DNA of 47,072 nucleotides from Nautiliaceae bacterium (GTDB lineage Bacteria > Campylobacterota > Campylobacteria > Campylobacterales > Nautiliaceae): the NCBI GenBank assembly GCA_027083695.1, contig JALWNI010000081.1:1-47072 (forward strand). Reading direction: 5' to 3'. A model generated the notes under the pieces. The model did no database searches. It was not told the DNA's origin and saw nothing but the letters and a program-made list of their open reading frames with translations. How positions within the stretch are numbered: the stretch's first letter is position 1; every line of letters starts with the position of its first letter. The position numbers and the translations under genes were made by a program. Positions 27,074-27,348 of this stretch are shown here, in pieces.

Positions 27074-27348
27074 TTTAGAGTTGTTGAGTTAATGAGAGCT
27101 ACTGGGAGCGGTAACTCCCAATAGCTGATAAGATGGGCGTGAGTGGTGATAGCGGCAACTATCTACCACCGAACATATCACAACATATCATCACACATCG
27201 TAATTATACCATAACAATATAAACTTGTATAGGTTTATATACAATCTTATATTGTTTATAGGACTAATTACATTACTCAAAATTGTTTACTACTACTTAT
27301 TAACCCCCATCTAATCAGCACTCTCATTAATTTTTTAACAACTCTAAA
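27074..27348 (+). ncRNA. Candidate large multi-branched structured element upstream of alpA
   Basis: Closing stem of 12+10 bp, a second 13-bp stem (12/13) and three internal hairpins; see findings. Could be RNA or a DNA cruciform/origin. Strand is a guess. Confidence 0.45.

What the first reader, a model, noticed from the sequence alone, without database searches (positions are those of the whole stretch)
27074..27348. ~275-nt multi-branched inverted-repeat structure upstream of the AlpA-like gene
Read directly: TTTAGAGTTGTT (27074-27085) pairs with AACAACTCTAAA (27337-27348); TTAATGAGAG (27089-27098) with CTCTCATTAA (27321-27330); CTGATAAGATGGG (27125-27137) with CCCATCTAATCAG (27306-27318, 12/13). 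Between them are hairpins AGCTA-C-TGGGAG[CGGTAA]CTCCCA-A-TAGCT (27097-27126), GTGGTGATAG[CGGCAA]CTATC-T-ACCAC (27143-27169), and nested AACAATATAA..TTGTATA[GGTTTA]TATACAA..TTATATTGTT (27213-27256). It contains no ORF. This much nested pairing suggests a structured RNA (regulatory or replication RNA) or a structured origin. I do not match it to a known RNA family.
Basis: partly seen in the sequence, partly recalled or inferred. Interest (0 to 1): 0.82.

Follow-up and report, generated by a model that had tools for sequence, protein, structure and literature searches.

The report
Folded RNA leader before alpA
A very strongly folded 275-base stretch sits exactly where the messenger RNA of a small mobile element's control and replication genes should begin, and two of its hairpins carry a loop that recurs between genes of many phages, so it is probably an RNA control switch, although no experiment has tested it.

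Summary
All named arms are at the stated coordinates, and the region folds far better than dinucleotide shuffles (z = -11.1 on +, -9.9 on -; none of 100 shuffles as good). It lies in a 9.5-kb element of a Nautiliaceae genome, integrated in the 3' end of tRNA-Ser(GGA), between a toxin-antitoxin pair and the alpA-primase-helicase genes. No Rfam family reaches threshold, and a model of the fold finds no copy in 399 other genomes of the order.

Best reading: the folded 5' leader of the alpA mRNA. The first arm starts 9 nt after a -10-like box. The last arm ends 13 nt before the alpA Shine-Dalgarno (SD) sequence and can pair either with the first arm (SD open) or with the SD itself (SD closed). Three related elements have shorter inverted-repeat leaders in the same place; two of them differ by stem substitutions that keep or improve pairing.

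Unexpected: hairpins 1 and 2 share the loop CGGYAA. Hairpins with this loop and many different stems recur between phage genes, on the mRNA strand (sense 70, antisense 8). No Rfam family describes them, although weak antisense matches to Streptomyces Scr6925 recur. The switch, the transcript and the loop's function are inferences.

The parts
24396..24409 (+). attL core TGGCGGAGAGTGTG of the integrative element
   Evidence: direct copy of the tRNA-Ser 3' end at 33922-33935; 2 matches, chance 0.00
24599..25774 (+). tyrosine integrase
   Evidence: Pfam Phage_integrase and Arm-DNA-bind_3; phrog_1 integrase
26173..26791 (-). ParE/RelE-like toxin (26173-26415) and upstream partner ORF (26405-26791), divergent from the alpA operon
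   Evidence: Pfam ParE_toxin E 3e-13 for the toxin; partner without family
27037..27064 (+). putative alpA promoter TTTTCA-16-(TG)TACAAT; expected start of RNA about 27071
   Evidence: consensus match only; such sites are no commoner than chance in this region, so support is positional: it ends 9 nt before the first arm
27074..27085 (+). 5' arm of outer stem, TTTAGAGTTGTT
   Evidence: pairs with 27337-27348, pairing probability about 1 for most pairs
27089..27098 (+). 5' arm of second stem TTAATGAGAG, pairs with 27321-27330
27103..27120 (+). hairpin 1, TGGGAG[CGGTAA]CTCCCA
   Evidence: loop motif AGCGGYAACT
27124..27137 (+). 5' arm of third stem, pairs with 27306-27319 with one A-A mismatch
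27143..27169 (+). hairpin 2, GTGGTGATAG[CGGCAA]CTATC-T-ACCAC; same loop as hairpin 1, different stem
27200..27271 (+). long A+T-rich hairpin 3
27306..27348 (+). 3' arms of third, second and outer stems
27337..27344 (+). switching segment AACAACTC: pairs either with 27078-27085 or with the alpA SD region 27365-27372
27362..27377 (+). alpA SD and start, AAGGAGTTGTTTAATG
   Evidence: read directly
27375..27563 (+). alpA: AlpA-family HTH protein, 62 aa
   Evidence: Pfam Phage_AlpA 7e-8; phrog_66 excisionase and transcriptional regulator
27782..28129 (+). ORF115, the marker shared with related elements (79% identical in L020)
29416..31886 (+). replication genes: CHC2 zinc-ribbon primase piece, 269-aa ORF, 460-aa ORF
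   Evidence: Zn_ribbon_DnaG 1.6e-6 for the first only; the other two have no Pfam family, roles as Toprim-like primase and helicase-like protein are inferred from position and from a weak DnaG-like PADLOC match
32073..32280 (.). cluster of 7 GGGGACAAT iterons, likely replication site
   Evidence: chance 0.18, no shuffle reaches 7
33922..34011 (-). tRNA-Ser(GGA), integration target, attR

Best explanation
It is the structured 5' leader (5' UTR) of the alpA operon of a small tRNA-integrated element, read from the + strand, acting in cis on alpA translation. Shown: the fold; its position between a promoter-like box and the SD; and the double complementarity of the 3' arm. Inferred: the transcript starts at about 27071, so its first 15 nt are the 5' arm. 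While that arm is paired with 27337-27348 the alpA SD is open. If the arm is removed or occupied (RNase III-type cleavage of the long helix, a competing RNA, or a protein bound to the CGGYAA hairpins), segment 27337-27344 pairs with the SD and shuts alpA, the likely activator/excisionase, and with it excision and replication. The two CGGYAA hairpins are probably docking sites for a recognising factor, because the loop is kept while the stems differ.
For: Fold z -11.1. A -10-like TACAAT ends 9 nt before the first arm, and in relatives L020/L027/L029 CATAAT-TCCATT-G is followed at once by a leader with inverted repeats in front of an alpA gene. The L027/L029 leaders differ at 4 of 77 positions: 3 lie in one hairpin stem, one pair changing T-A to A-T by a double change and one T-T mismatch becoming T-A. 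In silico switch: in the full transcript the 3' arm is paired with the 5' arm (P 1.0) and the SD is 0.55-0.69 unpaired; removing 9-10 or more nt from the 5' end moves it to the SD (P 0.94 or more, SD 0.15-0.20 unpaired), at 37 and 55 C. The local SD hairpin is as stable in only 0.1% of shuffles of arm plus spacers and 1.2% with the arm kept. Strand: the CGGYAA loop is the sense-strand loop in phages, SD plus start within 90 nt downstream sense-only 70, antisense-only 8; in the window this is the + strand, the strand of alpA.
Against: No transcript data. Promoter-like sites are no more frequent than chance here. The fold has lower absolute energy on the - strand, and wobble pairs do not decide the strand. 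The SD switch is not predicted in the three relatives, whose leaders are only 98-150 nt with modest z (-2.4, -1.4, -3.3), so neither the inner domain nor the switch is shown to be conserved. The switching 8-mer overlaps the constrained SD sequence, and sharing an 8-mer with the 5' arm occurs by chance in 2.8% of shuffles.
Confidence: 0.5

Rival explanations
1. P4-like immunity: the leader makes a processed regulatory RNA that pairs in trans with the repeated GAGTTGTT sites (5' arm and SD) and stops expression of the replication operon in the integrated state.
For: The layout sense-antisense-sense (GAGTTGTT 27078, AACAACTC 27337, GAGTTGTT 27365) resembles seqA/seqB/seqC of satellite P4 as recalled from established knowledge of P4; gene order AlpA-like then primase is as in P4; for the repeats.
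Against: No terminator-like site in or after the leader (the only one found in 26700-27800 is at 27741-27755, - strand); the repeats are only 8 nt; P4 itself has no CGGYAA hairpin.
Confidence: 0.15
2. Structured DNA used in replication: a single-strand or cruciform initiation site for the element's primase and helicase.
For: Near-perfect inverted repeats on both strands; in P4 the origin lies directly upstream of the AlpA-like gene; the element has its own primase gene.
Against: Iterons sit at 32073-32280, none in the structure; relatives with the same primase module keep only much smaller inverted repeats here; two more distant elements with related 460-aa proteins showed no such multi-branched fold in the same gap by inspection of one MFE fold each, without shuffle controls.
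Confidence: 0.15
3. The functional RNA is the - strand transcript, a trans-acting or antisense RNA.
For: Lower absolute free energy on -; weak Rfam Scr6925 (Streptomyces sRNA) matches lie on the strand opposite to the CGGYAA loop in the window (23.9 bits), in phage Dobby (29.0) and in L063 (30.1); scr6925 is reported as enriched in an RNase III mutant (PMC5775266).
Against: All Scr6925 scores are below its gathering score of 50; phage CGGYAA hairpins are sense to the next gene 70 to 8.
Confidence: 0.1
4. A palindrome-rich MITE-like insertion with terminal inverted repeats TTTAGAGTTGTT, without regulatory role.
For: Terminal repeats of 12 nt, nested palindromes, no gene; the inner domain is missing from the leaders of relatives.
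Against: No second copy in the genome or in 399 other genomes of the order; no target-site duplication visible; the outer arms sit where relatives also have leader inverted repeats.
Confidence: 0.07

Closest known systems
Satellite phage P4 late leader / CI RNA immunity system
   Same: small tRNA-type integrative element; AlpA-like gene before the primase genes; regulatory RNA with a segment complementary to two repeated sites
   Different: P4 acts through transcription termination with a short CI RNA (established knowledge, not tested here); here no terminator is seen, the fold is about 275 nt, and the alternative pairing is with the SD; no CGGYAA hairpin in P4
int-alpA RNA motif (candidate structured RNA between integrase and alpA genes; recalled from memory)
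   Same: same genomic slot, between an integrase gene and alpA
   Different: no Rfam 15 family reached its cut-off in this region, and none of that name appears among matches up to E = 10 here; a paper search did not find a description
Scr6925 (RF02826), Streptomyces small RNA
   Same: two hairpins whose loops (UUGCCG, UUACCG) are the complements of the CGGYAA loops; weak matches recur in the window and in two phage loci
   Different: scores 23.9-30.1 bits against a gathering score of 50, and on the opposite strand
CGGYAA-loop intercistronic hairpins of phages such as Pseudomonas phage Dobby (Peduoviridae)
   Same: same hexaloop closed by different stems, sense strand, in gaps of an operon with a primase gene
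   Different: in Dobby single hairpins of 6-12 bp between genes; here two copies inside a large multi-branched leader; no name for this hairpin was found in Rfam or in the papers searched

Membership tests
any Rfam 15 family | covariance-model score at or above the gathering cut-off | tested here: not met
   only two tRNAs in the whole window; best in the region is Scr6925 at 23.9 bits against 50
Scr6925 (RF02826) | score at or above 50 bits | tested here: not met
   23.9 bits on the - strand
cis-regulatory mRNA leader | structured RNA between promoter and SD of the regulated gene | tested here: inconclusive
   fold and spacing fit; the transcript is not shown
cis-regulatory mRNA leader | two mutually exclusive structures that open or close the SD | tested here: inconclusive
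   predicted thermodynamically for the window; not predicted in the three relatives
cis-regulatory mRNA leader | stems kept by compensatory changes in homologues | tested here: inconclusive
   one compensatory pair plus one repaired mismatch between L027 and L029; the window's own fold has no close homologue
P4-type CI RNA immunity | leader terminator controlled by a short RNA | tested here: not met
   no terminator-like site in the leader by a simple consensus scan
replication origin | iterons or initiator binding sites within it | tested here: not met
   GGGGACAAT iterons only at 32073-32280
MITE / insertion element | multiple copies and target-site duplication | tested here: not met
   single copy; no duplication visible

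The most novel reading that the evidence does not exclude
The CGGYAA hairpin is an undescribed, widespread RNA element of temperate phages and their satellites: a fixed hexaloop on variable stems, placed on the mRNA strand in front of genes and recognised by a host or phage RNA-binding factor. In this Nautiliaceae element two copies are built into a large leader whose refolding opens or closes alpA translation, linking that factor to excision and replication.
Probability: 0.25. Interest if true: 0.75.

Novelty: new variant of a known kind. Interest (0 to 1): 0.52.

Why it matters
Control of excision and replication by RNA is known in detail for very few mobile elements, chiefly P4. A leader switch on an AlpA gene in a vent bacterium would extend it to Campylobacterota. 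The shared CGGYAA loop gives a concrete handle: a small recurrent RNA hairpin, testable by pull-down, in many phages, for which no family description was found here.

Tried and rejected
DNA and covariance-model searches for copies of the whole fold: none in 20 other family genomes or 399 other genomes of the order; three weak BLAST hits (L004-L006) lie inside ordinary coding sequence. Phage and plasmid collections: no DNA match. Viral-contig scans with the AlpA, ORF115, 269-aa and 460-aa proteins: none. More distant elements found by the 460-aa protein (L010, L011) have AlpA but no comparable fold in one MFE fold each. Retron: no reverse transcriptase among the genes of the element scanned against Pfam. 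Origin: iterons elsewhere. Wobble-pair asymmetry as a strand test: undecided. GAGCGGYAACTC in 400 genomes of the order: matches occur in 71 genomes, with reversed-control matches of similar order in the table (not summed), so the excess is a viral-contig observation and not shown for cell genomes. My first SD Monte Carlo had an off-by-one error in the spacer and was redone.

Full report
Setting. The window is contig C81 of a 1.5-Mb genome whose nearest searchable relatives form one family; relatives of its ORF115 come from a Nautiliaceae MAG and from one MAG labelled Gracilibacteria, probably mis-binned. Between 24396 and 33935 lies an integrative element: a 14-nt repeat of the tRNA-Ser(GGA) 3' end flanks it, with a tyrosine integrase at one end, a ParE-like toxin and partner on -, then on + alpA, ORF115, small ORFs, a zinc-ribbon primase piece, a 269-aa and a 460-aa ORF, and an iteron cluster. 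The structure occupies the gap between the toxin-antitoxin pair and alpA.

Observation. The fold is far below shuffled controls on both strands. The listed stems overlap by two bases at hairpin 1, so the + fold has three stacked long stems (12, 10 and 6+7 bp), a shortened hairpin 1, hairpin 2 and a long A+T hairpin. No Rfam family reaches threshold.

Position. A TG-TACAAT box ends at 27064 and the first arm starts at 27074; the outer stem ends at 27348, 13 nt before AAGGAG of alpA (27362-27367). Promoter-like matches are not above chance in this region, so the argument is positional only.

Relatives. Three other elements carry alpA and ORF115: L020 (G001; ORF115 79% identical), L027 and L029. 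Each has CATAATTCCATTG followed at once by a 98-150-nt leader with nested inverted repeats that ends at the alpA SD. Folding z-scores are -2.4, -1.4 and -3.3. L027 and L029 differ at 4 of 77 leader positions; three are in one hairpin stem, where a T-A pair becomes A-T and a T-T mismatch becomes T-A. So inverted-repeat leaders recur at this place, but the roughly 220-nt inner domain of the window is not found elsewhere.

Switch. The 3' arm AACAACTC has two complements, the 5' arm and the SD region GAGTTGTT. In ensemble folding the full RNA pairs it with the 5' arm; RNAs lacking the first 9-10 or more nt pair it with the SD. The local SD hairpin is as stable in 0.1% of shuffles of arm and spacers and in 1.2% when only the spacers are shuffled. 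A shared 8-mer between 5' arm and SD region has a chance of 2.8%. The relatives do not show this switch, so it is a prediction for this element alone.

CGGYAA hairpins. AGCGGYAACT occurs twice in the window, both as + strand hairpin loops within the leader (no shuffle of the window has two). Some contigs carry both stems (L051, L060, L063, L104 and others). In the fetched phage loci CGGCAA is the commonest hexaloop of hairpins with stems of 6 bp or more, even with the two searched stems left out (5 and 9 distinct stems, next best 3; none in the control loci). Of 126 distinct hairpins with 22 different stems, 70 have an SD and start codon within 90 nt downstream on the sense strand only and 8 on the antisense strand only. 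The counts are de-duplicated by sequence context but not corrected for phylogeny, and the loci were picked by the loop. In the annotated phage Dobby both copies lie in gaps of the early operon, after the primase and the DksA-like gene, in gene orientation; P2, P4 and phi3 have none. Rfam has no family over threshold for them, but Scr6925 gives weak antisense matches in all three places tested; the cited paper reports scr6925 as enriched in an RNase III mutant (PMC5775266), which would fit double-stranded processing.

Conclusion. The most likely function is a cis-acting, refolding leader of alpA on the + strand (0.5). Shown: fold, position, double complementarity, loop recurrence with sense bias in phages. 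Inferred: transcript, switch in the cell, the factor that reads the loop. Rivals are P4-like trans RNA, DNA origin, - strand RNA and MITE.

Noticed in passing
IMG/VR loci L049-L128 and L229-L333; phage Dobby NC_048109.1 near 31409 and 32037: Hairpins with hexaloop CGGYAA on many different stems recur between phage genes on the mRNA strand (sense-only 70, antisense-only 8).
   Followed up: partly
window 32073-32280: Seven GGGGACAAT iterons in both orientations downstream of the 460-aa ORF, the likely replication site of the element.
   Followed up: partly
window 26905-26923 and 26979-26997, partly 27433-27444: Imperfect 19-nt direct repeats TGTKTATAKCTGTATATAA upstream of the alpA promoter and a related inverted copy inside alpA; possible AlpA or repressor operators.
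   Followed up: no
window 33258-33362; L020 near 11666: GGTTAACTTTTT repeats near one end of the element; L020 has a GTTAAC-rich inverted repeat in its element.
   Followed up: no
L027, L029 (MAG labelled Candidatus Gracilibacteria): Contigs carry Nautiliaceae-type element genes (73-78% identical ORF115); probably mis-binned.
   Followed up: no
L026, L028 (JALVUH MAG): Two element copies whose contigs break just upstream of or inside ORF115, near the leader region, as if the assembly failed there.
   Followed up: no
window 28243-28461 (-): Small HTH protein opposite to the operon, conserved in L020 and L027, candidate repressor of the element.
   Followed up: no
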